From Clavelina lepadiformis (taxonomy: Eukaryota > Chordata > Ascidiacea > Aplousobranchia > Clavelinidae): a stretch of 64,000 nucleotides of DNA. The notes under the pieces were generated by a model. That model was not told the origin of the DNA. It was given only the letters and a program-made list of their open reading frames with translations, and did not search any database. The DNA lies in assembly GCF_947623445.1 (NCBI RefSeq), contig NC_135244.1, positions 20,212,860 to 20,276,859 on the forward strand, given 5' to 3'. Below, piece by piece: positions 9,629 through 52,718 of this stretch. The first letter of the stretch is position 1. Each line of letters starts with the position of its first letter. Both the position numbers and the translations under genes were made by a program.

Positions 9629-10067
9629 ATGCCTGAGTCAGATATCCAGAAAACTATCAATCGACTTTGGGCTGGATTAATTGGTTTTATAATTTTGTGC
9701 CTTTTGGCATTATTCATCCATTTTTATTGTAAAAGCAGCAGGGTATGTAAATCCTGCAAGCCGCGCATGTCCTGTGAGAAAGACGAAAGGTGACAATTTT
9801 TGCAATTAAACTCTCGTTTATTGACATGTAAAAAGTTTTTATATTTTTAAATATCAAGGTATTATGTAGACATATGATGTATTTGCATGTAATTAATCCT
9901 AAGTACATTTCAATTTTTTTAGAATATCTACAAGAACATACTTTGCCTCAGATTTTAAGCGGGAATCCTTCAAACCAAGATTTAAAAACAAATTTTTTTC
10001 CTCGTACGCGCCAATGAACAATGTTTCGTTTGAAACAAAAAGTTGCAATAATGAATTTTGGATTTAG
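9629..10067 (+). CDS. Adaptor-like single-pass membrane protein, 101 aa, two exons
   Basis: Exon 1 runs from ATG 9629 to 9789 and exon 2 from 9923 to TAG at 10065-10067; the intron has GT (GTGACA) and a T-rich acceptor (CAATTTTTTTAG). Joined in phase 2 the frame is open throughout. The protein has a short N-terminus (MPESDIQKTINRLW), one membrane helix (AGLIGFIILCLLALFIHFY, about residues 15-33), a Cys-rich juxtamembrane segment (CKSSRVCKSCKPRMSC), then a 48-residue tail rich in Phe, Lys and Ser. The helix followed by closely spaced Cys is also the layout of the genes at 13361 (-) and 27528 (+), and the position about 500 bp after a copy of the shared upstream block fits too. The tail has no acidic repeats or ITIM-like motifs. 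An alternative donor GTATGT at 9743 would end exon 1 after the helix. No family name can be given. Confidence 0.55.
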
Positions 10068-10700: not shown

Positions 10701-12596
10701 AAAATAATCACGGAGGAAATTACAACCGATGACCAGAAAGATCTGCGCTATACTGTAATTAAGAACCTCATCCATTTATTTAATTGTGACGACAACCAGC
10801 AGGCGTATACAATATTATTCCATAATTTTGCTTTGTTTGCTTCTGAACCGGTTAAACTTCTACTTATTAAACTTTATATTTTACATGTTCTTGCCGTTTT
10901 TTAAATTTGGAATTTGAATCTTTAAACCGCAATATACGAAACATTGGAATGTTTCCAGATATTTCGAAATATTGTCTTGAGGAAATCGCTTTGCGTGAAA
11001 AACTTACATACTTTGCAAGCATCTGCAACATATGGCCATCCGTTTAAAATTAAAAGATATTGTTTATGTACAAAAAAGTAGCTGTATAACAAAATGACTC
11101 AAATACAATAATTTGTGTGTTCTTTGTGTTGCTGACCATGCATATTGACGTATTGTTGTGTAACAAAACTATGTCACTTGTGATTTATATATTATCTTAT
11201 GTTTTTCCGTTTTTCATGTGTTAATTCTCTACTTGATGTGCGATGATTACTTCACGATGCTTTGCTTTTAGTTGATTACTTGCGATTATCATTGTTTATC
11301 TCACGTTTTGTGCGTTCTTATCTTAACCGTAGTTTGACAGGTCACATTTTGCATTCTATAAAATACGTTATTAAGTGATTTCAGCGGGTCGGTTTGGTTT
11401 TGGTCGTGGGAGCTGTTTCATGAAATAAATTGCTTTTTTTGGGTTTTACCGATGGTGTGATGGTGATGGATGGTGGGAAAACAACCTGGCACCAGAAGGC
11501 AAGAATCTTCGGTTACAGTTGTATGTGTATTAAAACATTCTATACGTTCCACACACTACAAAGGTTTGCTATTTATCCTCAATCCTTCCACAAAAATATT
11601 CTACACACATACTTGGATTTTAATGCACTAAAGAGTAGTAGAAATGCGACATTAAATAAAAGTTAAACTAAATTCCGCGTTGTACTATTGCACGTTATAA
11701 GATATTGCTTAAAATAATCTGTAAAGTGTTAAGAACAACCTGTATTGTTTATTAGAAGAATACGAGTTTTACGCTGTTATTCCAAAAAAACATTTAACAT
11801 CTTTAACAAGACTGTATTATCCTGTCAGTGATAACTTAAATCAAATTTTCAATTTCTCACTTTGAAACTTTACTGGATACTTCCCATCCAAAATTACTAA
11901 AAGCTCAAAACGTTTAAAAGCATCATGAAAAAATTAACAATCCGGTGTGGATGTCTATACACTAACTACATAGCTTTGCAGTCAAGACGCTTCAGCCACG
12001 ACAAAACTGCTTAGTTAATTTTTCAAAAAACTTATATTACTTTCTTTAAAACGACGTGATAAAATGTACATACAAACAACAAATTAATTGTCAATGATCG
12101 TTAAGTTACTAAAGATACATTTTAAATTCTATACTGAAACAGACAAATGCAGCATGATAGTATTGTGAAAGTTTCTGCTTTGTACATATATCAAAGACAA
12201 TTTCTTTCCAACAATGGGTTGTATCTTTCTATGCAGCAATTTTAACGCGCAATAAAATGAAACACAAGATTTCAGCCAATGCAGTTATTTACAACAGCGT
12301 TGTAAAATAAACGTAACAATAAACGTTTAACAAAATACAAATGCTACAAAAATATCCGACGACTATAAAACAGCTATACATACAAAAACTACAGTATTAT
12401 GATAAAAATTCTAAAAGATTACGTTAAAAATTGCCCATCACAAGGTTCTTGTTTCTTTTTTACGTTTCAATGCCATTCTCAAGGAATTATAGATCAGTAA
12501 TTAACCGGCAATCAAAAATTGCGCCACACGATGAACGATTTCCTTGTCTTTCTCTTTGTTTTGTAGGATTTTTGTTTTTAATAGAAAGCTGATTTT

Positions 12597-13361
12597 TTAT
12601 TCATTTTCGGGATCCTCGTGTATAACAGGAAGATAATTGATCTCCTCTGTAGAGCCGGGATCTTCGTGAAGAGCAGGAGGAAGTTGATCACCCTCTTCTT
12701 TACCCTCTGGGCCCTCGTGTATAACAGAAAGATAATTTATCTCCTCCGTACAATCGGGATCTTCGTGAAGAGCAGGAGGAATTTGATTACCCTCTTCTTC
12801 ACCCTCTGAATCCTCGTGTATAACAGGAAGATAATTGATCCCTTTCTTAGAGTCGGAATTTACGTAAAGAGCAAGAGGAAATTTATCACCCTCTTCTTCA
12901 CCCTCTGGACCCTCATGTATAACAGGAAGATAATTTATCTCCTCCGTAGAGTCGGGATCGTCGTGAAGAGCAGGAGGAATTTGATCACCCTCTTCTTCAC
13001 CCTCTGGATCCTCGTGTATAACAGGAAGACGATTTTGCTTTTGCTCAGTTTTCCGCCATTTCTTAACTGGAAGCTCAATATTCTCTAAATTTTCTTCAGA
13101 TTAAATTCTTGCCAATATATGCCCATACAATACGATGATAACACAACACATAAATATACTTTTTAAATTTAGATATAACGTAGGTTTTGATCTTAAAATA
13201 TAATTACCTGCTTCTTCTTCTTGGTCGAGTGGCCTCCAACATCGCCTGCATAACACGCAAGTTTTACTTTTCCAATAAAGGCAACATCTCCATATCAATA
13301 AACAACAGAGAACTGCTACGCTTCCGAACATCAAATAAGTTAGTATGTAAACAGCAACCAT
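12597..13361 (-). CDS. LAT-like transmembrane adaptor with tandem ITIM-like acidic repeats, 213 aa
   Basis: Exon 1 is 13361-13208 and exon 2 is 13084-12597 (TAA); the donor is CAG|GTAATT, the acceptor TTTAG, joined in phase 1 with no stop. Residues 2-26 form a membrane helix (VAVYILTYLMFGSVAVLCCL...), followed by Cys-rich RCCLYWKSKTCVLCRRCWRP, which could be palmitoylated as in LAT-type adaptors. After a basic linker (VKKWRKTEQKQNR), five units of 33 residues follow, the last cut short: [INY]LPVIHEDPEGEEEGDQIPPALHEDPDSTEE. Four units start INYLPV or INYLSV, which fits the ITIM consensus (I/V/L/S)xYxx(I/V/L); the first unit lacks Tyr. Acidic residues around the Tyr suit Src-type or Syk-type kinase sites. 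With so short an N-terminus the tail should be cytoplasmic. It is an adaptor by layout only; sequence homology to LAT is not claimed. A copy of the shared upstream block lies about 270 bp upstream. Confidence 0.7.
12600..13035 (-). repeat. Coding minisatellite, 99-bp unit, about 4.4 copies
   Basis: Inside exon 2 of the adaptor gene, the DNA repeats every 99 bp with marks such as CTTCCTGTTATACACGAGGA at the start of each unit. Length is a multiple of three, so changes in unit number keep the frame and change only the number of ITIM-like motifs. The inverted sister at 27845-28280 has the same units with more changes. Confidence 0.9.
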
Positions 13362-13629
13362 GGTAGCATATAATCGAACAGTTATCTCAAAACATTTTCT
13401 ACATCTTGATGAAATATGTAATTAGGGTAGATTAGACAATTATTTTCTGCTATACGAAATATATCAAGTAATTGTAATAATAATTTTCTGCTATATATAT
13501 CAAAAATACATCAAGATTACGTTATTATTAACTAGCAATCGTTTTCGGTCATTAACTTACGTTCAACTCGATTATCTTATTTAAAAAACTATATTTTCTA
13601 ATACCTTAAAGTTGTAAAATCAACGAATT

Positions 13630-13769
13630 CTGACAACTCAATACCAAAAGTAGAATTGATCTTGTGCGATTTGCTCATCGAAGTCCTGTCTGGTAAACGT
13701 TTTATGCTGCGGGTAGAGATAGCGCACAAAGCGCACTTAATGACGCCTACATTCCACACAAACACGGGG
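13630..13769 (-). promoter_or_regulatory. Shared upstream block, copy 2
   Basis: Read on minus: GTGTTTGTGTGGAATGTAGG, later CAGCATAAAACGTTTACCAG and TTCTACTTTTGGTATTGAG. It is the closest relative of the block at 26915, before the sister gene. The block begins about 270 bp upstream of the start codon at 13361. Confidence 0.65.
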
Positions 13770-14450
13770 AGGAGAATCACACCAACAATAAACCAACCTT
13801 CAAGTTTTTTTGGCATGATCAGTACATTAACAAAGTATTTCTTGTATATAAACACGCCCCAAACAGAATATATACTAACAAAAAATGCATCAAGATAAAT
13901 ACTGTATAATTGTTTGCATTAAAGAAAATAATTAATTAATTATTGTGTTGTGTAACATTGTTATTTTTTCTTATTAGCAGGAACATTTGGATTAAAGCAA
14001 AATAGCCAACACCTTCTCGTTATAAACACTTTTCGCATGACGCTTTCACAAACGTTAACTATCTCGAATATTTCGAATGTTTATTAATTTTCACTTTTTA
14101 CAAAGGTTATGCAGTAAAATTGGAATACTGTCATAGATGTTTGGATAATGACTTGAGAGCATATTGGAAAAAGTATTTCCGTAGAAGCGTCGCAAAGTCT
14201 AATGTGACATAAACATTTATTGTAAAAGGTCGAGATTAATTTGCAAGGAGATTTTCAATTTTTATTCTGATTTTTAATTTTTGATTTCTATATCAGTTAA
14301 TTAACAAATCAATAGCTATTACAATAATTAGGCTTTTTTTCATCACAAGGCTTTTACTGTCATAAAAAGAATCAGTGGTTTATGTTAAGACAGTGAATTA
14401 AACTATGCATAGATGGAATATCTTCACTCACTAAATAAAGAATAAAGTAG

Positions 14451-26180: not shown

Positions 26181-26914
26181 TTCTTTTACTAATTGATTGA
26201 TCACATACGGAATCTAAAAAAATAAAAAAATAAATTCGTTGTTTTAACATAAACCGCTGACTAATTTTGTGACAGTAAAAGCCTTGTGATGATTGTAAAA
26301 TAAGTGTAATTGTTTTTAAAGCCCTTAACTTTTTAACTGACTTAAAAATCTGGATGACAATGGAAAGCACACCTTACAACTTATATAATATTGACTTTTT
26401 ACAAGAAATGTTTATGTCGCATTAGATTATGCGACGCTTCAACATTTTTACAGTAATGCATTTTCGACGCTCTCAAGCCATTATCCAAACATCAACGACG
26501 GCGTTCCTGTTTTTCTGCATAACCCTTGTAAAAATTAAAAAATTAATCGAGATACTTAACTTTCGAAATATAATATCATGCGGAAAGCGTTTATAACGAG
26601 AAGTGTTGTTAGTTACTTTTCTTGTGTGTAACATGCTCCTGTTACTAAGAAATAAAAACTTATCTATGTCAAAACAATGATTTATTATGGCGACTTATGG
26701 TGATGTATGATTATGGTTATGGTAATGATTTATGACCAATGATGGTGTTTTCACCATCGCTTGGCGTCTCTATGGTTTTTATCCGGATCTTGGTGCATTT
26801 TGTTGTGTATTTTTCTGTCTGGAACGTGCTTCCATACAAGATGTATTGTCACTACACGTATGGTGTCAAAAAGAAAAATTCGAAGGCTTTGTATCTTTTC
26901 ATGTTATTCTCCTC

Positions 26915-27070
26915 GCCGTGTTTGTGTGGAATTTAGGTGTCATTAAGTGCACTTCTTGCACCATTTCTACCCGAGACATAAAACGTCGATTGCAAGGCAG
27001 AACCTCGATAAGCAATTCGCACAAAATCCATTCTACTTTTGCTGTGGAGCTGTCATCAGTTGTGATTTGT
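26915..27070 (+). promoter_or_regulatory. Shared upstream block, copy 7
   Basis: GTGTTTGTGTGGAATTTAGG, then CGAGACATAAAACGTCGATT and TTCTACTTTTGCTGTGGAGC. It starts about 610 bp upstream of the gene at 27528 and is the inverted sister of copy 2. Confidence 0.65.
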
Positions 27071-27527
27071 GGTTTTGTAAGCTGGTTTTAGCCAGATGTC
27101 ACAAAGGACACATTTTACTTCAATTTTAAAGGCACACTGTTTGAGTTGCATGGTAGGTTTTGCTAAAATGGAAGAGTTTAACCTAGGATAATGATCGAAA
27201 ACGGTAACTAACTAACATTACGTTAACGATGATGTGTTATTTTGCTGAAGATAAGAAAAACAGTCGCCATAGTTTACAATACATTTTCAAGCTAACCAAA
27301 GTTTTGTGCTAGGTTTGAAACAGGAAATTACCAGAAATTACAAACGCTTTATCAGTTAGGTATAAGAATGTGATTTCAGTATACTTTATTCTATACTACA
27401 ATCAATAGCGTTATATCTGCCGTAAAATGACATACCAAGACTAGAGTTTTTTTTTCTTTTTATCTAACCCTTGATCACATATAATCAGAGATAAGTAACT
27501 GCTAAGATACTTCGCCTAGATGCTGCC

Positions 27528-28284
27528 ATGAACCATGCTGCTCAATATATCATAATGGGAGGCTTGGCAATTTTTATAATTTTTTTATGCTTAAGTTATA
27601 AATGGTTAAAAAATAAAGTTATGGGGATCTGCAAGCGATGCTGCCGGCCGAGCGAGCAAGAGAAAGATGACGAAAGTGGTATTGGCTTGTTTGTAATTAT
27701 GCCAGCGTTATGGCTAGATTTAAAACGTATAGTTATGCATATTGTTTTATTATTTTATTATATTGGCATGAATTAATCATAAAAATTTTTAGAGAATACT
27801 GATCTTTCTGTAATAAACCAAAAGCCCGAAACAGAGCAAAAGGCAAAATCGTCTTCCTGTTATATACGAAGATCCAGAGGGTGAAGAGGAAGAAAGTCAA
27901 CTTCATGTTGTTGAACTCAATGACCATGGAATTGAGGAAAGCAGTAATTCTCTTCCTGTTATACATGAGGATCCAGAAGGTAAAGTGGAGGGTGATCAAC
28001 TTCCTCATGCTCTTCACGTGGATTCCGACTCTACGAAGGGGGTAAATTATCTTCCTGTTATACACGAGGATCCAGAGGGTGAAGAAGAGGGTAGTCAACT
28101 TTCTCATGCTCTTAACAAATATCCCGACTCCAAAGAAGGGTTCCATTATCTTTCTGCTATACACGAGGATCCAGAAGGTGAAGAGGAAGGTGATCAATTT
28201 CTTGTTGCTCTTCATGAAGATCCTGACTCTACGGAGGAGATCAATTATCTTCCTGTTATACACGAAGATCCCGAAAATGATTAA
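27528..28284 (+). pseudogene. Sister of the LAT-like adaptor gene, frame-shifted in exon 2
   Basis: Exon 1 (27528-27678) encodes MNHAAQYIIMGGLAIFIIFL, the rest of a membrane helix and the Cys-rich VMGICKRCCRPSEQEKDDES, with a phase-1 donor like the gene on the other arm. Exon 2 (from 27793) starts in the homologous frame, but the copy has GCAAAAGGCAA where the sister has GCAAAAGCAA, one base more, so the acidic repeats fall out of the frame. The repeats themselves are open to the end (to TAA 28284) in their own frame: two of them keep an ITIM-like motif (VNYLPV, INYLPV) and one is altered (FHYLSA). A different splice site could restore use of the repeats, and the repeat frame being open suggests the break is recent or avoided. 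Confidence 0.6.
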
Positions 28285-30420
28285 AAAATCAGCTTTCTAT
28301 TAAAAACAAAAATCCTACACAACAAAGAGAAAGACAAGGAAATCGTTCATCGTGTGGCGCAATCTTTGATTGCCGGTTGATTACTGATCTATATTTCCTG
28401 GAGAATGGGATTGAAACGTAAAAAAGATACAAGAACCTTGTGATGGGCAATTTTTAACGCAATCTTTTAGAATTTTTATCATCATACTGTAGTTTTTGTA
28501 TGTATAGCTGTTTTATAGTCGTCTGATATTTTTGTAGCATTTGTATTTTGTTAAACGTTTATTGTTACGTTTATTTTACAGCGCTGTCATATAAAACTGG
28601 ATTGGCTGAAATCTTGTTTTTAATTTTATTGCGCGTTAAAATTTCTGCTTAGAAAGATACAACCCATTGTTGGAAAGAAATTGTCTTTGATATATGTAAA
28701 AAGCAGAAATTTTCGCAATAATATCATGCTGCATTCGTCTATGTTTCAGTATTGAATTTAAAATGAATCTTTAGTAACTTAACGTTCATTTACAATTAAT
28801 TTTGGATGGGGAATTTTCAGTAAAGTTTCAAAATGTGAAATTGAAAATTTGATTTAAGATATCACTGACAGCATAGTACAGTTCTGTTTTTAGATGCTAA
28901 ATGTTTTTTGGAATAACAGCGTAAAACTCGCATTCTTCTAATAAACAATACAAGTTGTTCTTAACACTTTACAGATTATTTTAAGCAATATCTTATAACA
29001 TGCAATAGTACAACGCGGAATTTAGTTAACTTTTATTTAATGTCGCATTTCTACTACTCTTTAGTGCATTAAAATCCAAGTATGTGTGTAGAATATTTTT
29101 GTGGAAAGATTGAGGATAAATAGCAAGCTTTTGTAGTGTATGGAACGTATAGAATGTTTTAATACACATACAACTATAACCGAAGATTCTTGCCTTCTGG
29201 TGCCAGGTTGTTTTCCCACCATCCATCACCATCACACAATCTGTAAAACCCAAAAAAAGCAATTTATTTCATGAAACAGCTCCCACGACCAAAACCAAAC
29301 CGACCCGCTTAAATCGCAACAAAGGATTTTATAGAATGCAAAATGTGACGTAACGCAAATTGAGACGTTTCATATGACGCAAATGAAAAGTAACGCATTA
29401 TAACACGGAAAAAACATAAGATACTCTATAAATAACAGGTGACATAGTTTTGTTACACAACAATACGTCAATATGCATGGTCAGCAACTCAATGAACACA
29501 CAAATTATTGTATTTGAGTCATTTTGTAATACAGCTACTTTTTTGTACATAAACAAAATCTTTTAATTTTAAACGAATGGCCATATATGTTGCAGACGCT
29601 TGCAAAGTATGTAAGTTTTTCACGCAAAGCGATTTCCTCAAGACATTATTTCAAAATATCTTGAAACATTCCAACGTTTTGTATATTTCGGTTTAAATAT
29701 TCAAATTCCAAACTTGAAAAACAACAGGAATGTGTAAAAAATTAAATCTTTAAAGTAAAAATTTAACCGGTTCAAAAGTAAACAAAGCAAAATTATGGAA
29801 TAATATATTGTATAATATACAATATATTGTATACTCCTGGTGGTTGTCGTCATCATACAAATAAATGGATGAAATGTTTAAATAACTAGAAATTGTCTGG
29901 TTAGCGATTGTACTTACACGCTTCTTTTCAAATTATTTATGTACAAATTTTGTTTATACAGACGCTTTTTGAACGTTTGTTCTTTGTAGTCTGTATATCG
30001 TATTTTAAAGGTTTCGCACAAACCTTTCCGGTAGCAAACGTTGCAATAATTATTACTTTTCATTTTTAGTCGTAAAAGCAAACGCTTGGGTCATGCCAAA
30101 AGTAAAGCTCGGGTTCGTGAGAAAACTTGACGTTCGTGCCGAACTTTCTGGCTTAGGTTCGGGCTCGGCACGTTTTATTACTTTGCAAGCATCTATTACA
30201 TACACACGACACGTTGCTTTCCTTATTAGAGGTTGGTGTTTGTGTATAAAGATATAATTATGACATAGAACGACGTAAAAAGTGTCGCTTACACCAGCAT
30301 TAATTTGTGCCATTAGTACATTTGTGTATGTGTTGTATGTATATACATCACCTGCAAGATGTTTGTTGTCATTTAAATTATCACTCAAACATTCCACACT
30401 GTTAAAAGTTGCGGGGTCAA
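28285..30420. other. 3' flank of the adaptor copy; no gene
   Basis: The stretch is conserved in the left arm. The 78-codon frame 29026-29262 (minus) and its mirror at 11430-11666 begin with TTG and lie in equally conserved non-coding DNA, so I do not call a gene. An AT palindromic repeat (AATATATTGTATAATATACA) is at 29801-29834. Confidence 0.45.
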
Positions 30421-31494: not shown

Positions 31495-31902
31495 ATGAGT
31501 TTTTTTAACGTTTTGTTCATAAAAAGCTTAAGTTATTTGCTCTGGTGCACAACTGATGTTATTGCAACAACTGATTTTACAACAACTGCTGCAGGTGAAG
31601 ATAACCGTAACTAATATTAAACCTTTTTAAAAGTTTGCAATTTAGTATATTTATCGAGTTCTTTTAATGACCTTTTCCAAACGTTTTGTAAAATACGCCA
31701 TCTGTCACATTTAGCAACAGCTTCAAACTATGTTACAGGTTACAACGAAACAACACCTGGACATGATGTAACTAATGCAAGGTTTTCCTGGAAGATTGTC
31801 ATTATAGCACTTTGTAGTTTTGCGACTATGATAATAATATTTGTGTTGCTTTCTGTTACGTTCTGCCCTAGACACCGTCGAAGAAGAGGATTACTTCAAT
31901 AA
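31495..31902 (+). CDS. Type B small single-pass membrane protein, 87 aa
   Basis: Exon 1 is 31495-31594 (donor CAG|GTGAAG) and exon 2 is 31739-31902 (acceptor GTTACAG, stop TAA), phase 1. The signal peptide is MSFFNVLFIKSLSYLLWCTT, followed by a Thr-rich DVIATTDFTTTAAG and a second stalk segment YNETTPGHDVTNARFSW with one sequon (NET). The helix is KIVIIALCSFATMIIIFVLL and the tail is SVTFCPRHRRRRGLLQ, a Cys plus a very basic patch. A further acceptor at 32014, ahead of AAAATGAAAAACAAAAC, matches the third exon of type A genes at its start, so a longer splice form is possible. The gene has tandem sisters at 39369 and 44688. No enzymatic or binding domain is visible. Confidence 0.65.
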
Positions 31903-35387: not shown

Positions 35388-37800
35388 ACTGGTCAACACA
35401 CATTTTGGTGCCAAGAAAGTTTCAACGGTTTTAGGGTATTTTTATGTCGCTGAATCCAAAAATGGCATTAGTTTTTCCGAATTGGCTCTAGTTTTTGAGA
35501 TATTCCATGTTTTTGTTTCAAAAAGTGCTAAAAATACGCAAATTTTGACATAGGTAAAATTCTTTTTATACTACAACTTCGATGAGTCTACATCTGTCTT
35601 TTCAATCATGTCCATACAGTATTCATCTATTTCTGATGCGATATTGTTAAAGACGCAATCGTTAACACAGAGAGCCTTCTTTACGCGAATCATGTTTCAT
35701 GTGAAAATCAAGCAAAAATTATAAAACTTAGGCGATGTTAGCAGTAAACAACAGATTTTTGTAACGCAAAAACAGGCGACGTCAAAGCACAAACACTACT
35801 TTTAGTAACGCTCAATGTACATTTAGTAAGCTGTCAAAGCACGCTAATCAATCATATATCGGTACTGTAATACAAAAAAATTAGTCGATGCTTGTAAATT
35901 TTCTTTTGTACGACTTTCTGGAATGTGATGCAGCCAAGCAGTCACGTTGGAGACTCCAACAGTAGTCGGCCATCATATGGGCATCCCACCTGCCCTGATA
36001 CCTCTCTTCTATGACCTTAATGTCCTGGTGGAACCTTTCTCCCTGCTCTTCACTTAGATCACCAAGGTTTGCAGGAAAACGATCTAAGTGGCTGAAGAGA
36101 TAGTGAACCTTGATACTCATCTTCACACCCAAATCTTTCAACTTGGAAAGCATATCTTCCACCAATTCTTGGTAATTTTCAGCTTTTCGGTTACCAAGAA
36201 AGTTCTGTGTGACTAAAACAAACGATTGCCAAGCAGCAGACTCTGTGTCTGTCATGGACTGCACAAAACACACATCCTTTATGAGTTTGCGGATCTGAGG
36301 GCCATCAAAAATGCCTGCTTTAAGCTTTTCGATGGTCAAAGCAGGAAATGTTCTGCAAATATAGTTGAAGCAATCCCCAGTTGCAGGCAAGGCTTTCACA
36401 AATTGCTTCATCAAACCAAGTTTTATGTGCAGCGGTGGAATGATGATCTTCTCTCTAGCAACTAAAGCTTCATTTATGATGTTACCTTCACCTACTCTCA
36501 TGGAATCTCTAAGTGGCCACCCTTTCTTCACCCAGTGATCAGTGCGCGCTCGGCTATCCCACAAGCAGATAAAACATGGGTATTTTGTATATCCGCTTTG
36601 CTGGCCAAGCAAAAAATTTACCATCTTCAAGTCTACACAGATTAACCATTGGTGAGAGTCATAATCCAGTTTCTGTAATACCGTTTTAATGTTGTTGTAC
36701 TCTTCTTTTAGTTTTGTTGAGTGGCCAATTGGGAGAGATGCATATCTGTTACCATTATGTAGCAATACACATTTCAAACTCCTTTTCGAACTGTCTATGA
36801 ATAAGCGCCACTCTTGAGGTCTATATTGTGGCACTCCCATTTTCAGCAGAAGCCCTTCGATGTCTTTGCAGTAAACAAGGTCATCTTGTTGGCTAAAATA
36901 CGGAAGTAATTCTTTCTCTCTTGTACGGTAGAATGTTATTGAAGCTCCGGTTCCAAGGCAGTTTTTGTCTTTGAGTCAGGATGCCAAAATTTCTGCTGCT
37001 TCTTTGGATAAGTTGAGATCCCTGATAAGATCGCTCAGCTCCTCCTGCTTGAATGGCTCTGGAATGAATGGACTGCTTTCGAACACACTTCCACTGCTCT
37101 CACTTGCAGAGCATATATATATACTGAACGACAATGTGACAGGTTGTCAATTCAGTCACAGGAAAATGCATCCTCCCAGTGACAAGGCCTAAGCATATTG
37201 TCAAACTTCCACTAATGAACTCAATTCTCACTTGAATTACAAAAAACCTCCACGTTTTCCAAACTTACTTATGTGAGCAATAGCTTGAACTTGACTCGTG
37301 GTATTCCTTTCTCTGGCTACAGAACTATTAAATTCTGATTACAACATCTTTAGTCTACAACAATATAGCTATAAAATGAGATATTGATATGATGTGATAA
37401 CTGAAGGGAGTACTCTACACTGTACATGTGGTGAACAATACAAAGAAACTGTAGCTTATCAGAATGATGCCGAAAATGGAGTGTTTTCAATGCCTTGTTT
37501 CTGAAGTAATGGGATGCTACAATAACAAATAGACATAGTGGAGTATCTGGTCCAAAATAAGTAATGCATACTGCCTAAGAGACATTTCCAATATGCATTT
37601 TACTGATGCTTGTGTTCACAATTGGCAGATACTAAAGTTAACGATTTTTCTCTGGTCAAAAATAAAAAACATCGATATCTCAAAAACTAGAGCCGATTCA
37701 AAGAAACGAATGTTATTTTCGGACTCAGCAGCCCAAAATTACCCAGAAACCATCAAAATATCTTTGGCACTCAAAAAAAATGTTTTTTTTGTTGGCCAGT
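35388..37800 (-). mobile_element. 2.4-kb TIR DNA transposon
   Basis: The left end ACTGGTCAACACACATTTTG and the reverse complement of the right end (ACTGGCCAAC...) start imperfect terminal inverted repeats of about 140 bp that share GGCTCTAGTTTTTGAGATAT. TTAT occurs on both sides (35384-35387 and 37802-37805, one extra G on the right). The uninterrupted paralogue at about 42145-42165 (TTTGATTATATAAGCACAAT) shows the empty site. The element carries one transposase-like frame on minus. I do not place it in a named superfamily. Confidence 0.85.
35881..37165 (-). pseudogene. Transposase-like ORF of the TIR element (widespread invertebrate repeat protein)
   Basis: The uninterrupted part, 36975-35881, gives 319 residues from its first ATG (36840). 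It contains EWRLFIDSSKRSLKCVLLHN, ICVDLKMVNFLLGQQSGYTK, CFICLWDSRARTDHW, IIIPPLHIKLGLMKQFVKAL, NFLGNRKAENYQELVEDML, HYLFSHLDRFPANLGDLSEE and QGERFHQDIKVIEERYQGRW. From memory these are marks of a repeat-borne protein that is common in hydra, aphids and other invertebrates; I have no curated name for it. The FID..S, D and E/H-rich blocks suggest an RNase H-like fold, which is inference. Upstream, the same frame is open from about 37165 to 36979 (SDLIRDLNLSKEAAEILAS), then an in-frame TGA (36978-36976) separates it from the main part. The usual N-terminal region is not recognised, so this copy is probably inactive. Confidence 0.7.
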
Positions 37801-37929: not shown

Positions 37930-38400
37930 CCATATTTATTAGCATTAAGAAATTGAGCATTTTGCTATAGACTTAATGGTACAAAAAATTGAATCATGAT
38001 ACTGTAGTTTTTGTATGAATAGCTGTTTCATGGTCGTTGGATATTTTTGTAGCATGTGTATATTCTTAAAGGTTTATTGTTACGTTTATTTTACAGCACT
38101 TAAATATCTGGATTTGTTAAAGTTTTTACTTCACTTTATTGCGCGTTAAAATTGCTGCATAGAAAGATACAGCCCACTATTGGAAGGAATTTGTCTTTGA
38201 TATATGTACAAAGCAGAAATTTGTCACGAATATCATCATGCTTTGTTTATGTTTAAGTGTAGAATTTAAAATGTATCTACAGTAACTAACCGTTTTATTG
38301 AAAATGACTTTGTTGTTTTTATGTACAATTTTATCACGTCGTTTAAAGAAAGCAATATAAGTTTTTTGAAAAATTAACTAAACTCAAATAACTAGAAATT
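37930..38400 (+). other. Chimeric unit joint: type A leader fused to adaptor-gene 3' flank
   Basis: Up to TTAATGGTACAAAAAATTG (about 37995) the sequence matches the leader just before the type A start codons (47740, 57570). From ATACTGTAGTTTTTGTATG onward it matches the 3' flank of the adaptor genes (28485). The signal exon that should follow the leader is absent. The same joint recurs at 42335. Confidence 0.7.
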
Positions 38401-39368: not shown

Positions 39369-39854
39369 ATGAATCTTTTTAACGTTTTGTTCATAAAAAG
39401 GATAATTTCTTTGATCTGGTGCACAACTGAAGTTATTGCAACAACTGATTTGACAACAACGGCTGCAGGTGACGTTGGCATTTAAGTAATATTAAAGCTT
39501 TTTAAAAAGTTAGATTTTTATAAACGAAGCAGTTTAATCTATTTATGGAGTTTGCCTAATGACCTTTTCCAAAAGGTTTGGAAAATATGCAAGTCTTTAA
39601 CATTTAGTGTAACAGCTTCAAACTATGTTGCAGGTTACAACGAAACAACACCTGGACATAATGTAACTAAAACAAGTGATACCTTTAAGATTGTCATGAT
39701 AACAGTTTGCGTTCTTGCGCTTATGACAGTAATAAGTGTGAAGCTTTATGCTACGTTCTGTCCTATACACCGTCGACGAAGACTCAGTAACATTATCAAT
39801 AACATGTTTGTTGAATTTAACTTCCACAACTATTTTTTTTTTTCCAGAATTTGA
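39369..39854 (+). CDS. Type B small single-pass membrane protein, 106 aa
   Basis: Exon 1 is 39369-39468 (donor CAG|GTGACG) and exon 2 is 39634-39854, phase 1. The signal peptide is MNLFNVLFIKRIISLIWCTT; stalk EVIATTDLTTTAA, then GYNETTPGHNVTKTSDTF with two sequons (NET, NVT). The helix is KIVMITVCVLALMTVISVKL, followed by YATFCPIHRRRRLSNIINNM. The tail runs 15-20 residues beyond the sister at 44688, through VEFNFHNYFFFSRI, because the stop used there is absent here. This extension crosses a T-rich stretch and may be neutral. Block, leader and both exons are arranged as in the sister gene 5.3 kb further right. Confidence 0.65.
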
Positions 39855-42149: not shown

Positions 42150-42720
42150 TTATATAAGCACAATAAGCTTAATACAGATCCTTTTAGTTTCAATGGTTTT
42201 GTATACAACATAGCCTACGGGGCTTTTATACGATTTTATTTGTTGGCAGCCCTTACATATAATATTTGACTATATTTATTAGCATTAAGAGATTGAGCAT
42301 TTTGCTATAGACCTAAAGGTACAAAAAATTGAATCATGATACTGTAGTTTTTGTATGAATAGCCGTTTCATAGTCGTCGGATATTTTTGTAGCATGTGTA
42401 TATTCTTAAACGTTTATTGTTACGTTTATTTTACAGCGCTTAAATTACTGGATTTGTTAAAGTTTTTGTTAAACTTTATTGCTCGTTAAAATTGCTGCAT
42501 AGAAAGACACAGCCCACTGTTTGAAAGAAATTGTCTTTGATATATGTACAAAGCAGAAATTTGTCACGAATATCATCATGCTTTGTTTATGTTTAAGTGT
42601 AGAATTTAAAATGTATCCATAGTAACTAACCGTTTTATTGAAAATGACTTTGTTGTTTGTATGTACATTTTATCACGTCGTTTAAAGAAAGCAAGATAAG
42701 TTTTTTGGAAAATTAACTAA
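42150..42720 (+). other. Chimeric unit joint, second copy
   Basis: It has the same leader-to-3'-flank fusion as at 37995 (GGTACAAAAAATTGAATCAT, then ACTGTAGTTTTTGTATG), so the rearrangement happened once and was then duplicated. Confidence 0.7.
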
Positions 42721-44300
42721 ACAATTTTGTCATGGGTGTACCGTTTTGACCATAAAGCTGTGTTGCAATGTTAATGTTTGTTCATATTCTCACATCAACT
42801 GTTAATTCTTTTCATGATACTTTTAAGCGTTTTTGGTTCGGACGTTTAGACAGGGAAGTTTTAAAAAGTCAAATTAAAAACTTTACTTAAGATATGACTG
42901 ATATCATATATCTTGGTAAAATATTTAAAAGTCTTAAAAACGACGTACAACACGCATTGTCTTAATAAGTTTTTTGATTATATTTTACAGGTTAGATTCA
43001 TTATAAGCAGATTAGACTGAAAGTTGTAAAACTGTTCCGGAGGGTCTTTGGATTGAGGTCGTCATCACACACTAGAATGACGAGTTATGTTTGCGCAATG
43101 AAATTATTTTGGAAGGCAATGGATGTTATATATACAGCATACATTTGCAGTTTTATAGAACCAGTTGGATATGTCAAATATCGGAATGGAAGTGTTTCGT
43201 TTACTCTTCAGTGCATTAAAATTCAAGTGTGTTTGTAGAACAGTTTTGTGTAAGGATTTACAGTAAACAACAAACCTATTTTTTATGCAACTTAAAAAAC
43301 ATATACAGCAATACATCAATATACACGGTCAACGACAATAAAAACACACAAAATATTGATGTAGTTTAGTCATTCCGTGACATAATTACTTTCTTATACA
43401 TAAACAATTTCGTTTAATTTTAAAAGGATGGTCATGTACTACAGATTCTTGCAAAGTTTGTAAGTTTTTCACGCAAAGCGATTTCCTCAAGATCATTTTT
43501 CGAAATATCTCGAAACATTCCTATATTTCGTATATGGCAGTTTAAATATTCAGATTCCAACCTTGAAAAATAACAGAAATGTGTAAAAAATTAAGTCTTT
43601 TAAGTAAAAATTTAACCGGTTCAAAAGTAAATAAAGCAAAATTATGGAATAATATTGCATACGCCCGCTGGTTGTCGTCATCATACAAATAAATGGATGA
43701 AATACTTAAATAACTACAAATTGTCTGGTTAGCGATTGTATTTACACGAATAGTTTCTTTTCAATTATTTTTTTGTACAGAATTTGTTTATACAGACGAT
43801 TTTCCAACATTGGTTCCATGTAATATGTATATCGTATTATAAAGGTTTTGCATAAACCAATCCGGTAGCAAACGTTGCAATAATTATTACTTTTCATTTT
43901 TAGTCGTAAAAGCAATCGTTTGGGTCATACCAAAAGTAAAGCTCGGGTTCGTGAGAAAACTTGAAAACGGGGACGTTCGTGCCGAGCTTTCTGACTTAAA
44001 TTTAGGCTCGGCACGTTTTATTACTTTGCAAGCATCTATTACATACACACAGCACATTTCTTTCCTTATTAGAAGATATTGTTTGTGTATAAATATATAA
44101 TTATGATATAGAACGACTTAATGAGAGTCGCTTACACCAACATTAATTTGTGCCATTAGTGCACTGGTGTATGTGTTGTATGTATATACATCACCTGATA
44201 GATGTTTTTTGTCGTTTAAACTATCACTCAATTATCATTTAAAGTATCACTCCACACAATTAAAATTTGTTGGGTCAAATGTTGCAATCTTCAAGATTTT
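42720..44300. other. Remnant of adaptor-gene 3' flank; no gene
   Basis: 43190-43260 and 43410-43740 match 29040-29100 and 29560-29900. The frame 43053-43238 is not preserved in the relatives. Confidence 0.5.
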
Positions 44301-44687: not shown

Positions 44688-45140
44688 ATGAATCTTTTTA
44701 ACGTTTTGTTCATAAAAAGTATAATTTGTTTGATCTGGTGCACAACTGAAGTTATTGCAACAACTGATTTCACAACAACGGCTGCAGGTGACGTTGGCCT
44801 TTAAGTAATATTAAAGCTTTTTAAAAAGTTAGATTTTTATAAACGAAGCAGTTTAATATATTTATGGAGTTCGCCTAATGACCTTTACCAATAGGTTTGG
44901 AATATATGCAAGTCTGTAACATTTAGTGTAACAGCTTCAAACTATGTTGCAGGTTACAACAAAACAACACCTGGACATAATGAAACTAAAGCAAGTGATT
45001 CCTGGAAGATTGTCATTATAACAGTTTGCATTCTTGTGGCTATGATAGTAATATTTGTGATGCTTTATGTTACGTTCTGCACTAGACACCGTCGACGAAG
45101 AGTCAATAACATTTTCAATAACATTTTTGTTGAAAATTAA
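44688..45140 (+). CDS. Type B small single-pass membrane protein, 95 aa
   Basis: Exon 1 is 44688-44787 (donor CAG|GTGACG) and exon 2 is 44953-45140 (acceptor GTTGCAG, stop TAA), phase 1. The signal peptide is MNLFNVLFIKSIICLIWCTT; the stalk is EVIATTDFTTTAA followed by GYNKTTPGHNETKASDSW, with two sequons (NKT, NET). The helix is KIVIITVCILVAMIVIFVML and the tail YVTFCTRHRRRRVNNIFNNI ends FVEN. Compared with 31495 and 39369 the signal and Arg-rich segments are strongly kept, while the stalk and distal tail vary. An optional third exon (acceptor TTTCAG at 45169-45174) is possible. Function unknown. Confidence 0.65.
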
Positions 45141-46009
45141 CTTATACATGTTTTTTGCTTTGATTACTCTTTCAGAAAATGAAAAACATGATATAGATCT
45201 ACTATATAAAGATCATTTGGTGATTCATTTCTAAAATAAAAAAGGAAAATTACTTTTTTAATACTGCAATGTAATATTTTTCGATTTGTCACTTTTGAAA
45301 ACAGAAACGAAACAGGATGCTCAGGAGCATTGTAATAGACAATTGTCTTCCAAAAATTTTAAAATTTCATTATGGTGTCATCTGTTCATTTAGAGTAGAA
45401 TTTCTGTTACTTTTAATTGGAAAATGTTGCTTTATTTCTTGTTTATTTTGCTGCATCCTGGTTATTTGAATTGCCTAAATTGCTTTTGCGCTTCATTTCT
45501 TGGTTAAATGTTACTTCAAACGACCAAATGCACCTTGTTAAATAACCTTTCATCTTTTAAACGGTATACTGTAAATACAAAATATTTGACTTCTGCTGTT
45601 TTGTGCAAAATACAAAGTAAATGTTTGTAAATTTGTAAACTGTGTTATGTTTCCCGAAATTTTACTTCAATATCTGTCTGTTTGTATGGTCATGACAGTT
45701 TTACAGGTTCAACTGCTTGCAAGACGAAAATATTGTTTACTTTAAATACCTACATAAACTTGGTTCACGATTAGACTTTAACAACCTTATGTAGCTGTCT
45801 TGCAAAGTGGTACACTTAAACGGTAAACTATTCAGAGTCAAAAACAGTGGCAAAGTAGAATACATAAATCATGATAAGACTGCACATTTTGCCAAGATGT
45901 ATTTTCTGTTAACAATAAATGGGTGGGGTTCTTTTAGAGATTTTAACGATATCTACGATCCACCATAATCGTGTCGCAAGATGGTAAAAAATTGTAAGTC
46001 GCATGGGGC

Positions 46010-46260
46010 ATTTTAGTTCGGGTTTGGGCTTAAGTTTCTAAACACGTTCAGGCAAAATTGGAACCCGAATTTATACCCAAACACTGCCTCATTTGCATTG
46101 TAATTATTTTGCCTTTTTTTGCTTAAATGTAGGAAAGGATGATGAAGATGTTAAGGAATATCAAAACATGGCTTTGATTTATTCAGTAAATTTAACTTTT
46201 GGATCTAATTGGGGTTTCAAATAAATTTTCGGTTTCGGGCCGGATTCGAGTAAAAAATAT
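46010..46260 (+). repeat. Interspersed repeat R1, copy 3
   Basis: TTCGGGTTTGGGCTTAAGTT to TTTCGGGCCGGATTCGAG. The internal frames differ from copies 1 and 2 by small indels. Confidence 0.6.
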
Positions 46261-46293
46261 AAGTTTACTACTCCGACGTGCTAACAGCAACAG

Positions 46294-46399
46294 AAAATTT
46301 AAGTCATTGGAAACACGGAAGGTGACTGTTCATGTCCTGCCAAGTCAAGCGTCCTCCAAAGTGGAGTCATCCAGTGTTATTTCTTCAGACATAATATGA
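46294..46399 (+). other. 106-bp conserved open block, copy 3
   Basis: It follows AGCAACAG and ends in SSSVISSDII. Here the frame is open back to an ATG at 46199, giving 66 codons, but the part before the CAG lies in repeat R1. Confidence 0.35.
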
Positions 46400-46974
46400 A
46401 GCAATAACAAGCAAAAAATAAGCTTGTAAATTCTATATCATTATATCATGTAAGAATATACTGCAAATCAAGTTTGAGCGGACGTAAACTGTCTGATTGA
46501 GTGAGTTATAGTATCTGTTGCTTGCATGGGTATACACATAGTTTATAACTGTCCTAAAAATGAATAACAACTTATGATAATTTTAAAACAATAAATAATC
46601 GAACATTGTTACTTTTTGTTAAACAATTAGTACCATATTCTCTGTTAAACACTTTTTTTGTTAAAATAATCTCTTGTTAAAAGATCCTTGCTTTCTTCGG
46701 TTATATCCAGCAGATAAACGGTCATTTACTATATTCAGATTCATGTAAACCCTAAAGTTAAGTCAAAGCTTAAAGTTAGCTACAGGGTATTTCTTACATT
46801 AGGTTTTTTTAAAAGGCTGGGATATCTGTTGCTTCTTTACTTGATTGTTACTTTTTGTACAAATTGGAATTCTTCTCATCAAAATCGCTAAATGTATTAT
46901 CTCCACGTAAAATATGCAACGTTGTCTTTTCAACATGTAATAATTACTATAGTTCTTTTTAATTACAGAAATAA

Positions 46975-47125
46975 TCATTGCAAAGTATTTCCGTGCCTGT
47001 GCTGTGTAAACCGCCCGCAAATTAAGATTTCCGTCCTCAGGCGTGCAACGTTACTCGCAAGATTGAGCCTTGCTTGGCGAGTTACAGCACGTCTGATTTA
47101 TTCTGTTTTGTGGTTGAGGTGTGAG
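46975..47125 (+). promoter_or_regulatory. Shared upstream block, copy 14
   Basis: TTTCCGTGCCTGTGCTGTGT, then CTCAGGCGTGCAACGTTACT, CGCAAGATTGAGCCTTGCTT and a donor-like GGTGTGAGTTG at its end. It is about 680 bp before the start codon at 47806. Confidence 0.7.
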
Positions 47126-47805
47126 TTGTTTTCCGATCAGTTGTCATTACGGTTACAAAAAATAGTTAAATAATGCTTACTGGTTTGAAAAGTATTCTGC
47201 AAAGTAACTGCTAAAGATACAGCGAAAAGGTTAATTCTTTCATAAGATCGTCTGGTTTCTCTATTGATAGCTATAAAAATAAGCTTTCATTTTTGTTGTG
47301 TTGTCATTGTTTCATCGGAAACTATAAGACGTTCTAAACTATTTTTCATAGTCTCTTGTTAACTTAGCTTAAATGTTGTAACACAGGAACCTAAACCTAA
47401 CCTAAATCTTTTTATTCTAAATCAAATTTTTCCAAAATCCATTAAAATTCTTGTAAAATCACCTCTTCTGTTTCCTTCTAAACTCGCCTGCGGTCATTTG
47501 CAACTGATCGTATGGCCATTATTGTGAAATAGTCTCTATTAAAATACATATGGTTTGATTATAATGGCTTAAATAACTTAATACAGAAACTTGCAATTTC
47601 CACAGTTTTCTGTATGGTATAGTCTGCAGAATTTTTATACGCTTTTATTTGTTGGCAGTTCTTTGAATTGTTGAAAATATTTGACCATATATATAAGCAG
47701 TAACAACTTTAATATTTTGTTATAGACTTATTTGTACAAAACATTGCTTTAAGGAGATTGTTAAACAGTAAAGTGGTACCATTATCGTTTAGAATAGGTT
47801 TGAAA

Positions 47806-48398
47806 ATGTATCTTTGTGAAGTGCTGTGCTTAAAAAATTTGTTTTTCTTGATGTGGTACGGAAGCTATGTTACAGCAACAAATGCAGGTCAACTAAGCTA
47901 TAACTTACTAAAGTTGAAGTTACAAATAAGCACTTACAAACATAAAATCAAAGCAATTTATGAAACTACGCTAAAAATTGCAAATAGTAAACTTTAAATG
48001 ATGTCTTTCTCCAAAGCAAATAAACCGAATTAGTTAACATTCAGCAGTTTTATATGTTACAGATTCCGAGGATTCTACACCGGCACATGATTCAAGTAAA
48101 TCAGTCTCACATATTGCGCTGGAATCTATCTTGTTTGGAATGATAGCATTGGGGATGACCGTCATTGTGCTTTTCGTCTTTTACCGTATCAACAAACAAA
48201 CAGACAGGCAATTGAGAGAACCAGGTAACCTTTTCAAATATAACCTATACCAAAATGGAATACTTTACCATACCAACGTACATGCTCATTCTATCATATA
48301 CAGTATATGAATAACATGTTTGAACTTTTTCAGAAAATCAACAAGGAAATTCAGCATTTAGGTTTGTTAAGGGAAATGTCGTCAACAGACGACAATAG
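47806..48398 (+). CDS. Type A small single-pass membrane protein, 102 aa, three exons
   Basis: Exons are 47806-47887, 48063-48224 and 48334-48398 (TAG); all junctions are phase 1. The signal peptide starts MYLCEVLCLKNLFFLMWYGS and ends near YVTATNA. Exon 2 gives an acidic, Ser-rich ectodomain of about 20 residues (DSEDSTPAHDSSKSVSH), a helix with a conserved Glu near its outer end (LESILFGMIALGMTVIVLFV) and a basic juxtamembrane part (YRINKQTDRQLREP). Exon 3 encodes the tail ENQQGNSAFRFVKGNVVNRR. The first donor (CAG|GTCAAC) is weak. A polyA signal follows at 48717. The near-identical copies at 51942 (-) and 57638 (+) keep all three exons open, which argues for function. No known domain. Confidence 0.7.
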
Positions 48399-48716
48399 AA
48401 TATAATATCAGATGCATCAAGCTATGGAAAACATGGACAAATTTTTTTTGGAATTAGATATTAGTATTTGATTCACAGTTTAAGTATGTTGCAAAAAGTT
48501 TATTCATGCTTTCTTTGTATCTGCATCAAAGCAATTGTTTGGATTAATCAAGTATACGTCTATATACAGTACTTCATTACTTGGTGATGGTTCAACAGAA
48601 ATATTTTTCCTCTCTGTTAGGATGTTTGGCTTTGATATAAAAACATAACATTTTCACAAATATTTAATCTGTCATTTTCATGCCTTAACAACTGTTTTCA
48701 CAAACCCTGAAATATA

Positions 48717-48722
48717 AATAAA
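48717..48722 (+). terminator. PolyA signal AATAAA
   Basis: It lies about 320 bp after the stop of the gene at 47806. The same signal is kept after the type A sisters (58557; 51023 on minus). Confidence 0.55.
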
Positions 48723-49519
48723 GTTATTGGTTCGTTGATGTTGGTTTTCATTATCATTTCGTCTTCTGAATCACAGCAAACATTAATGGTATCAGCGTTA
48801 ACAGAACACTTCCTAGATTTAATCTGTCTACTTGATATTAATATTGAATATAATCTACTGTATTTGTTGAATATTAAATAGTAATGAATGCTTATTTTAT
48901 GTTATTATATAGCAATAAAGATTAAGTAAGTGAAGCTAAGACGAAGGTAAAATCTAAATCATGTTTAACCAATGCAGCAATTAATACTCCTTTATAAAGA
49001 GGTACACTCTAAGTAATATACGTTTAGTAAACGTTTCATAAAGAAAAACCCGAGCATGATAAATATTCCTTGATGAGAGAAGAGTTGATCAAGTTATCAT
49101 CCAGCTAATTAAGGATTTTCTTTGAACAACATGCTGTACTTGTCGGATGAAGCCAAAAAATTAATCAGACAATGCAAAAGATCTTATTTCGTCTTGGTTT
49201 AAATCACGTTTGTCAAATATTTAAGGAACTGAGGCGGCTGAGTGACTCAAAACCACTCAAATGTTTTTACTGGGAAGGTTTGGCTCGTCTCTATTTTTAA
49301 AAACTAAACGTGTTAACAATTGGTAAATCTCCACCATTGTGAAGAAGGTTCCGCGATCGCTGCCATTGATCAATAGGAGCAATGCACAATGTTAATAGTG
49401 ATGTTTTAACCAGGTCATCATATGATTGGCGCACTAAATCATCAACTATATTGTCGTAGACAAGATCAATAACGATAAACTATACTGTGTCAGACGGAAG
49501 TCGGGCAAACCAGAGTTAT

Positions 49520-49745
49520 ATCTGGCCGTTATAATATTAACCCGAACCCGAAAATACAAGCCAGAATTCGTTCCGAAAGCGACATTTTTTATTGAAGTCC
49601 GAAATTGGACCGAGATTTAAGCTTAATGAATGAATCAAACTCCACTTTTGACGCCATCTTTAGACCCTCATCCTGACATGAAAGAGTAATTATGAGTATA
49701 AATTCGGGTCCTAATCTGGCCCGATTGTTATTTTTCAAATTTAAG
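49520..49745 (-). repeat. Interspersed repeat R1, inverted copy
   Basis: On plus it reads TTAACCCGAACCCGAAAATA ... TTAAGCCCGAATATGC. Its reverse complement aligns with copies 1-3 through GGATGAGGGTCTAAAGATGG. Opposite orientation in an otherwise direct array shows that it is an independent insertion. Confidence 0.6.
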
Positions 49746-51022: not shown

Positions 51023-51028
51023 TTTATT
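51023..51028 (-). terminator. PolyA signal AATAAA (minus strand)
   Basis: TTTATT on plus; it belongs to the inverted type A gene. Confidence 0.5.
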
Positions 51029-52717: not shown

Positions 52718-52718
52718 A

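What the first reader, a model, noticed from the sequence alone, without database searches (positions are those of the whole stretch)
12597..13361. LAT-like adaptor with four tandem ITIM-like motifs in an invertebrate cluster
A two-exon gene encodes an anchor helix, a Cys-rich juxtamembrane patch and acidic 33-residue repeats, four of which start INYLPV/INYLSV. These fit the ITIM consensus (I/V/L/S)xYxx(I/V/L), and hydrophobic +1 and +3 positions are also compatible with some PLC-gamma-type SH2 sites. Vertebrate transmembrane adaptors (LAT, NTAL, PAG) share the layout: minimal ectodomain, Cys near the membrane, acidic tail with several Tyr. A repeat-built version beside tiny receptors would be a new kind of signalling module.
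Basis: partly seen in the sequence, partly recalled or inferred. Interest (0 to 1): 0.8.

Follow-up and report, generated by a model that had tools for sequence, protein, structure and literature searches.

The report
Sea-squirt membrane protein, acidic repeat tail
A sea squirt carries a pair of unusual, otherwise unknown membrane proteins whose tails repeat a tyrosine-bearing motif; they are laid out like the vertebrate immune adaptor LAT, but nothing yet shows that they are related to it or work like it.

Summary
The open frame, repeats and splice consensus are real. The window is chromosome 5 of the tunicate Clavelina lepadiformis. Gene A (minus strand, 13361-13208 and 13084-12597) predicts 213 residues: almost no ectodomain, one membrane helix, a Cys/basic juxtamembrane patch and an acidic, probably disordered tail of 33-residue repeats. 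Codon usage and an inverted second copy (gene B, 27528-28284) support this frame: 438 bp aligned, 85 substitutions, no indel. B has a one-base frameshift unless it splices differently. No other repeat-bearing relative was found in the genome; no Pfam or PDB match of note. The layout is that of vertebrate transmembrane adaptors, and SHP-, PLC-gamma- and Syk-like domain orders occur in the genome.

The ITIM reading is weaker. The motif is one event (about 4% by chance) copied by duplication. 4 of 5 A units and 2 of 5 B units fit it; the Tyr (7 of 10 units) and the -2 residue (Ile in 5 of 10) are among the least conserved positions of the constrained half-repeat. What is conserved is LPVIHEDPEGEEEG. 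Best reading: a membrane-tethered multivalent docking protein, LAT-like in layout only; phosphotyrosine signalling is possible but undemonstrated. It sits in a cluster of tiny orphan membrane proteins.

The parts
13208..13361 (-). Gene A exon 1: start codon, uncharged 24-residue stretch, juxtamembrane RCCLYWKSKTCVLCRRCWRP with 5 Cys
   Evidence: Translation and splice scan; hydropathy and charges; ACCATGG start context; codon usage inconclusive for this exon
13085..13207 (-). Predicted intron of gene A, 123 nt, GTAATT...TTTAG
   Evidence: Open-frame splice scan, pair chosen by eye; TTTAG|AGAAT also present in copy B
12597..13084 (-). Gene A exon 2: linker, then repeat tail, stop at 12597-12599
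   Evidence: Open frame; codon usage +0.33 per codon, other frames at most +0.035; AlphaFold pLDDT 35, all residues under 50
12600..13037 (-). Gene A repeat units A1-A4 (33 aa each) and partial A5; A2-A5 begin INYLPV/INYLSV, A1 begins QNRLPV
27528..27692 (+). Gene B exon 1 (inverted paralogue): helix and GICKRCCRP juxtamembrane patch; 33-36% identical to A exon 1 over the aligned part
27844..28281 (+). Gene B repeat units B1-B4 and partial B5, open frame, 438 bp ungapped against A
   Evidence: codon usage +0.31 per codon
27835..28284 (+). Gene B exon 2 if the donor at 27693 and the acceptor before 27835 are used (204-aa product). With the A-like acceptor before 27793 the frame is shifted by a one-base insertion relative to A and ends early
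   Evidence: alignment, splice scan, translation
13598..13826 (-). U_A: ORF for another small membrane helix with KCALC and a basic tail; its stop lies 236 bp before the ATG of gene A; separate gene or upstream exon
   Evidence: codon-wise conservation with U_B, dN/dS 0.52 over 58 codons; scan; codon usage +0.10, best of six frames but weak; gap
26849..27091 (+). U_B: counterpart of U_A upstream of gene B (436 bp gap), so the pair was duplicated together
10756..12596 (-). 3' flank of gene A shared with the 3' flank of gene B (28286-29872)
   Evidence: 1560 aligned bp, 128 substitutions, 14 indel events

Best explanation
Genes A and B are paralogues, known so far only from this genome, that encode small single-pass membrane proteins with the N-terminus outside and the C-terminus in the cytosol. 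Shown from sequence: the frame, a helix-length hydrophobic stretch, the charge bias, the Cys patch, the acidic repeat tail and the constraint on one half of the repeat. Inferred: the Cys patch is palmitoylated, and the disordered tail is a flexible multivalent docking rod that gathers a cytoplasmic partner at the membrane through the repeated LPVIHEDPEGEEEG block (four full copies and one cut-off copy per protein), in the way transmembrane adaptors work. The Tyr just before that block may act as a phospho-switch for an SH2 protein in the units that keep it, but it is not what the repeat is chiefly constrained for.
For: Frame: codon usage; 85 substitutions and 0 indels in 438 bp where the rate of the 3' flank predicts 9.3 indels (P about 1e-4); more synonymous than non-synonymous change, dN 0.19, dS 0.35, Fisher p 0.018. 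Constraint sits in the a-half (dN/dS 0.49), not the b-half (1.07), and within it on L4, I7, E9, E12 at 10/10. Topology: charge +4/+5 after the stretch against +1 (the N-terminus itself) before it, 24 uncharged residues, in A and B. Disorder: pLDDT 35, tail rich in E and P, net charge -34.
Against: No transcript, no partner, no palmitoylation data. B has a frameshift unless it splices differently. dN/dS of 0.55 is mild, and among A's own units it is 1.1. A single-sequence AlphaFold model of low confidence does not prove disorder. Conservation among tandem units can be recency rather than function. The indel test takes the 3' flank as its neutral yardstick, although that flank is less diverged (8%) than exon 2 (19%).
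Confidence: 0.45

Rival explanations
1. True phosphotyrosine adaptor: Src- or Syk-type kinases phosphorylate the four INYLPV/INYLSV tyrosines and SHP-, PLC-gamma- or Csk-type SH2 domains dock; a tunicate stand-in for LAT or PAG.
For: Layout; four ITIM matches and one YxN in A; Glu before three of the four tyrosines; SH2 stretches (C3:9162643-9163422 minus, three stretches read as two domains) beside phosphatase stretches (C3:9159785-9161289 minus), PLC-X with two partial SH2 stretches on C4 (21453562-21457289 minus), SH2-SH2-kinase in one ORF. A 2025 review states that LAT and SLP-76 homologues are not found in Botryllus or other ascidians although nearly all the rest of the pathway is expressed in Botryllus (PMC12065747, passages).
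Against: Tyr and the -2 position are among the least conserved columns of the constrained half; units A1, B1 and B2 keep LPVI without the Tyr; 3.7% chance of the motif from composition, then copied. The YxN is single and not kept in B.
Confidence: 0.25
2. The tail is an acidic, fast-evolving disordered bristle or charge partner (for instance for the basic tails of neighbouring tiny membrane proteins), with tyrosines incidental.
For: Net charge -34; b-halves dN/dS 1.07; A units dN/dS 1.1; some neighbours have basic stretches after the helix such as HRRRR and NRRKK.
Against: The a-half is constrained (0.49) with invariant hydrophobic residues, which charge alone does not need.
Confidence: 0.15
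3. Secreted precursor: the hydrophobic stretch is a cleaved signal peptide, the basic Cys-rich stretch a peptide, the acidic repeats a neutralising pro-piece.
For: Basic Cys-rich stretch followed by an acidic region in both copies; B has a permissible cleavage site before YKW (judged by eye).
Against: 24 uncharged residues without a basic n-region and +4/+5 directly after them favour insertion as an N-out anchor (positive-inside rule, recalled). No signal-peptide predictor was run.
Confidence: 0.07
4. Not a working gene: a minisatellite inside a decaying ORF.
For: B frameshift against A; exon 1 codon usage inconclusive in A; mild dN/dS.
Against: No indel in 438 bp at 19% divergence and no stop in 146 codons of either copy; a simulation gives 9% for no stop if all 85 changes fell on one copy and 27% for 43 changes, so the stop test alone is weak; codon usage strongly in frame.
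Confidence: 0.08

Closest known systems
Vertebrate transmembrane adaptor proteins (LAT, NTAL/LAT2, PAG, LAX, GAPT)
   Same: Few-residue ectodomain, one helix, juxtamembrane Cys, long tail with several Tyr (definition from PMC4861716, passages); CxxC in A and B
   Different: No sequence similarity found; most Tyr sites are copies of one repeat; a single YxN context in A and none in B; acidic 33-residue tandem repeat; no evidence of phosphorylation or palmitoylation
Botryllus FF/FcoR pairs (fester family and fester co-receptors)
   Same: Colonial tunicate, paralogues encoded side by side in pairs, ITIM-like motifs in tails of one partner (PMC12065747, passages)
   Different: FcoRs are 520-610 aa with a signal sequence and Ig and sushi ectodomains; A/B have hardly any ectodomain; sequence not compared
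DAP12/DAP10-type signalling subunits
   Same: Minimal ectodomain, signalling tail (recalled)
   Different: No charged residue in the helix of A or B; tail several times longer (recalled comparison)

Membership tests
Transmembrane adaptor proteins (TRAPs) | Ectodomain of only a few residues | tested here: met
   The hydrophobic stretch begins within the first residues in A and B, no charged residue in 1-24; assumes the ATG at 13361 and that U is not an upstream exon
Transmembrane adaptor proteins (TRAPs) | Single helix, tail in the cytosol | tested here: inconclusive
   One hydrophobic stretch and positive-inside charges; topology itself not measured
Transmembrane adaptor proteins (TRAPs) | Juxtamembrane palmitoylation motif (most members) | tested here: inconclusive
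   5 (A) and 3 (B) Cys in the 20 residues after the stretch, CxxC in both; palmitoylation not testable here
Transmembrane adaptor proteins (TRAPs) | Several tail Tyr that bind SH2 proteins when phosphorylated | not testable with these tools
   Sites fit a consensus; phosphorylation and binding need experiments
LAT (Pfam PF15234) | Sequence match to the LAT profile | tested here: not met
   No Pfam match for spliced A at E up to 5; 0 matches of the LAT profile in the whole genome at E up to 10
PAG (Pfam PF15347, accession recalled) | Sequence match to the PAG profile | tested here: not met
   A and B scanned against Pfam-A without a PAG match at E up to 5; the genome-wide PAG search did not complete
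ITIM-bearing inhibitory protein | [IVLS]xYxx[IVL] in the tail | tested here: met
   A 4 of 5 units, B 2 of 5 units; B has one further match at the end of its helix, Y24
ITIM-bearing inhibitory protein | Motif kept by selection | tested here: inconclusive
   Tyr 7/10 and Ile(-2) 5/10, lower than the columns after them, which speaks against; but only two copies from one species

The most novel reading that the evidence does not exclude
Tunicates, reported to lack LAT and SLP-76, built a LAT-like hub afresh by tandem duplication of one SH2-docking peptide; each hub is duplicated together with a tiny membrane partner gene (U_A/A, U_B/B), giving a two-part receptor-adaptor module inside a fast-evolving cluster of tiny membrane proteins.
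Probability: 0.12. Interest if true: 0.8.

Novelty: new variant of a known kind. Interest (0 to 1): 0.45.

Why it matters
Tunicates are the sister group of vertebrates, and Botryllus is thought to use ITAM/ITIM-type signalling in allorecognition, yet a 2025 review says that LAT and SLP-76 homologues are not found there or in other ascidians (PMC12065747, passages). A repeat-built membrane hub would show how such an adaptor can arise quickly and independently, and the repeats make valency directly testable. According to a 2020 review allorecognition had not been studied in Clavelinidae (PMC7344649, passages).

Tried and rejected
Other reading frames of the repeat: codon usage at most +0.035 per codon against +0.33; the antisense frame that is nearly open (one stop in A, none in B) gives dN/dS 1.24. 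Homology to known families: Pfam gave for A exon 2 alone one match far below its cut-off (Phage_TAC_18, E 0.82), for spliced A none, for B one far below its cut-off (RadC, E 0.18); PDB, asked with A exon 2 only, gave none at E up to 1. RNA genes: no Rfam match at gathering score in the window. More copies of the gene: genome searches gave only A and B; these searches score only the best candidates, and one search did not find B's exon 1, so a relative without the repeats could be missed. For U: U_A, U_B and a weak match (C5:22221381, E 0.006, three stops inside). A third divergent copy at 9.6 kb: a small helix plus CKSCKP ORF, E 0.16 to B exon 1, with no codon-usage support (-0.03); not accepted as a paralogue. 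U_A as first exon of A: phases allow it in A, but in B the strong upstream acceptor leads to a stop, so left open (by eye). Fold search was not run because the model has no confident residue. In one search the start of B's exon 1 was off by one, so its exon 1 row is discarded; one search gives 27528 (the first notebook entry says 27529). Codon-usage training used 7 ORFs of 150 codons or more from 7 of 10 fetched SH2 loci; two of them (from L014 and L018) may not be genes, and their own scores are not held out.

Full report
What the window is. The window is C5:20212860-20276859 of a 209.06-Mb assembly in 95 contigs. C5 is 24,617,235 bases long and C4 25,070,715. The genome note of Clavelina lepadiformis gives chromosome 5 as 24.62 Mb and a scaffold N50 of 25,070,715 (PMC10884593, parts 1 and 2 of 3 read). 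The held assembly is slightly smaller than the published one (209.06 against 210.09 Mb; 95 contigs against 102 scaffolds; C1 is 28,783,666 against a longest scaffold of 28,789,166). Two other nine-chromosome genomes of similar size do not fit: Bugula neritina (216.0 Mb, chromosome 5 of 17.72 Mb) and Ascidia mentula (197.0 Mb, chromosome 5 of 22.35 Mb, though it too has 95 scaffolds) (PMC11480708 and PMC11109543, passages). So I call it Clavelina with high but not absolute confidence. It is a colonial tunicate; the published consensus quality is QV 67.4.

The gene. On the minus strand an ATG at 13361 in the context ACCATGG opens exon 1 (13361-13208); CAG|GTAATT and TTTAG|AGA bound a 123-nt intron; exon 2 runs 13084-12597 with the stop. 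Other splice pairs keep the frame open too; this one has the best consensus by eye. The product has 213 residues. Residues 1-24 hold no charge; the best 19-residue window has hydropathy 2.31; the next 15 residues carry +4 and the next 20 hold five Cys. The tail from residue 25 has net charge -34, with E, P, L and D the commonest residues. AlphaFold on exon 2 alone, without an alignment, gives pLDDT 35 with no residue over 50.

Is the frame real? Four lines. First, codon usage, trained on 7 ORFs of 150 codons or more from 7 of 10 fetched SH2 loci (1972 codons; two of the 7 may not be genes): +0.33 per codon for A exon 2 and +0.31 for B exon 2, other frames at most +0.035; the training ORFs themselves score 0.03-0.21 in the 6 of 7 printed. 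Exon 1 is inconclusive in A (-0.016, with another frame at +0.079) and weakly positive in B (+0.084). Second, the inverted copy: 438 bp of exon 2 align with 85 substitutions and no indel, whereas the 3' flank has 14 indel events for 128 substitutions, so 9.3 would be expected (P about 1e-4). Third, dN 0.193, dS 0.351, ratio 0.55 over 146 codons, Fisher p 0.018; frame +1 gives 0.61 but with 3 and 1 stops, frame +2 1.08, antisense frames 0.73 to 1.24. Fourth, no stop in 146 codons of either copy, which alone is weak (9% by chance if all 85 changes fell on one copy, 27% for 43 changes).

Copy B. It lies on the plus strand, 27528 to 28284, as part of an inverted duplication that also includes an upstream ORF, U. 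Exon 1 is only 33-36% identical in protein over the aligned part but keeps a helix-length stretch, a basic patch and CKRCC. The shared part of exon 2 is 81% identical in DNA. B carries one extra base, relative to A, before the repeats. With the acceptor used in A (before 27793) the frame breaks. With the donor at 27693, whose GTAATT matches A's donor, and a later acceptor (before 27835), a 204-residue product keeps the repeat frame. Which is used is unknown. The 3' flanks are more alike (8% divergent) than exon 2 (19%), and the last partial repeat is 95% identical, which suggests conversion of the 3' end.

What the repeat conserves. Ten units (five per copy, the fifth partial) were set in register. 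L4, I7, E9 and E12 are identical in 10 of 10; N2, V6, H8 and P11 in 9; Tyr3 in 7 (Arg, Arg, Ser otherwise); column 1 is Ile in 5. The ITIM consensus is met in 6 of 10 units: 4 of 5 in A, 2 of 5 in B; B also has a match at Y24 at the end of its helix, outside the repeats. A has in addition one YVNS, a YxN context, where B has HVDS. The 33-mer is, by eye, two related halves; over 28 unit pairs the Tyr-bearing half has dN/dS 0.49 and the other 1.07. Among A's own units the ratio is 1.1, among B's 0.70. A shuffle of the unit gives the ITIM context in 3.7%. So the motif is a single, mildly unlikely event that was then copied, and the constraint is centred on the residues after the Tyr. That is compatible with an SH2 site, since those are positions SH2 domains read (recalled), but three units keep the block without the Tyr. 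Two copies in one species cannot settle this.

Relatives. The tail, and then the whole spliced protein, were sought in six frames over the whole genome (E up to 0.001 and 10): only A and B. One search missed the diverged exon 1 of B, so relatives without the repeats could be missed. No Pfam family reaches its cut-off and no PDB chain matches exon 2 of A. The LAT profile has no match in the genome; the PAG search did not complete. No other tunicate genome was available to search, so how widely the gene occurs is open.

Surroundings. The right half of the window and about 26 kb beyond hold tiny single-pass proteins. One family has a near-invariant signal-peptide exon (13 copies at 85% identity or more in a 120-kb stretch, 5 of them in the window), a helix exon (11 copies, one partial) and a short tail exon; another has four copies of its helix exon, three in the window. 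Genome-wide their helix exons were found at 10 places, all in C5:20.26-20.30 Mb, and at 7 places, 5 of them in C5:20.23-20.28 Mb and two weak ones elsewhere; these counts are lower bounds. A scan of the 120 kb for ORFs with a hydrophobic stretch followed by CxxC gave 11 rows, 7 of them in the left half of the window, A, B, U_A and U_B among them. One representative of the first family has no Pfam match above cut-off; the others were not scanned. Calling them receptors goes beyond the evidence.

Partners. SH2: 58 stretches matched. On C3 three SH2 stretches, which read as two domains, lie next to phosphatase stretches on the same strand (9163422 down to 9159785), the layout of SHP. On C4 a PLC-X region is followed by two partial SH2 stretches (21457289 down to 21453562), the layout of PLC-gamma. 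One 596-residue ORF on C2 has two SH2 domains and a tyrosine kinase domain, the layout of Syk. These assignments rest on domain order alone; the phosphatase list was cut short by the tool.

Literature. The Botryllus review (passages only) says that homologues of nearly every protein of the mammalian ITAM/ITIM pathway are expressed in Botryllus ampullae, but that LAT and SLP-76 homologues are not found in Botryllus or other ascidian genomes, and describes paired FF/FcoR genes with ITIM, hemITAM or core tyrosine motifs. The adaptor review (passages only) describes transmembrane adaptors by a few-residue ectodomain, one helix, a tyrosine-bearing tail and, in most, a juxtamembrane palmitoylation motif. 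Four searches (tunicate ITIM, adaptor evolution, Clavelina immune receptors, tandem-repeat ITIM tails) showed 12 of 80, 12 of 100, 10 of 22 and 10 of 38 papers; none of the titles and abstract openings shown is about this gene.

Verdict. The sequence observation stands. The layout is that of a transmembrane adaptor, and it may work like one; membership in the LAT family is not met by sequence. I rate a membrane-anchored multivalent docking protein as most likely (0.45), with the strict phosphotyrosine/ITIM version at 0.25.

Noticed in passing
window 46000-64000 and L004-L006: Array of tiny proteins with a near-invariant signal-peptide exon (13 copies), a variable ectodomain/helix exon and a conserved short tail exon; the helix exon was found only at this locus of the genome.
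   Followed up: partly
window 31720-31899, 39615-39782, 44934-45101 and L004: Second family of tiny membrane proteins (NETTPGHDVT... helix ...CPRHRRRR), four copies in the 120-kb stretch.
   Followed up: partly
window 9629-9789 and 9923-10067, + strand: Possible two-exon ORF of 101 aa: short N-terminus, helix, CKSSRVCKSCKP patch, then a tail with a YxxM motif (SSYAPM); another LAT-like layout, without repeats; codon usage gives no support.
   Followed up: partly
window 13598-13826 (-) and 26849-27091 (+): U_A/U_B: conserved small helix with KCALC/KCTSC directly upstream of A and B, duplicated with them; gene or upstream exon unresolved.
   Followed up: partly
L009:2516-4303: Open frame of 596 codons with two SH2 domains and a tyrosine kinase domain in one exon, a Syk-type layout.
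   Followed up: partly
window 35884-36975 (-): 364-codon ORF without a Pfam match at E up to 1; it reminds me of transposon-linked ORFs (recalled, not tested).
   Followed up: no
window 11749-12403 with 42333-42968, and 12011-12403 with 37993-38381: The 3' flank of A and B is also partly shared with sequence near the tiny-protein genes, 77-85% identical, so it belongs to a wider duplicated block.
   Followed up: no
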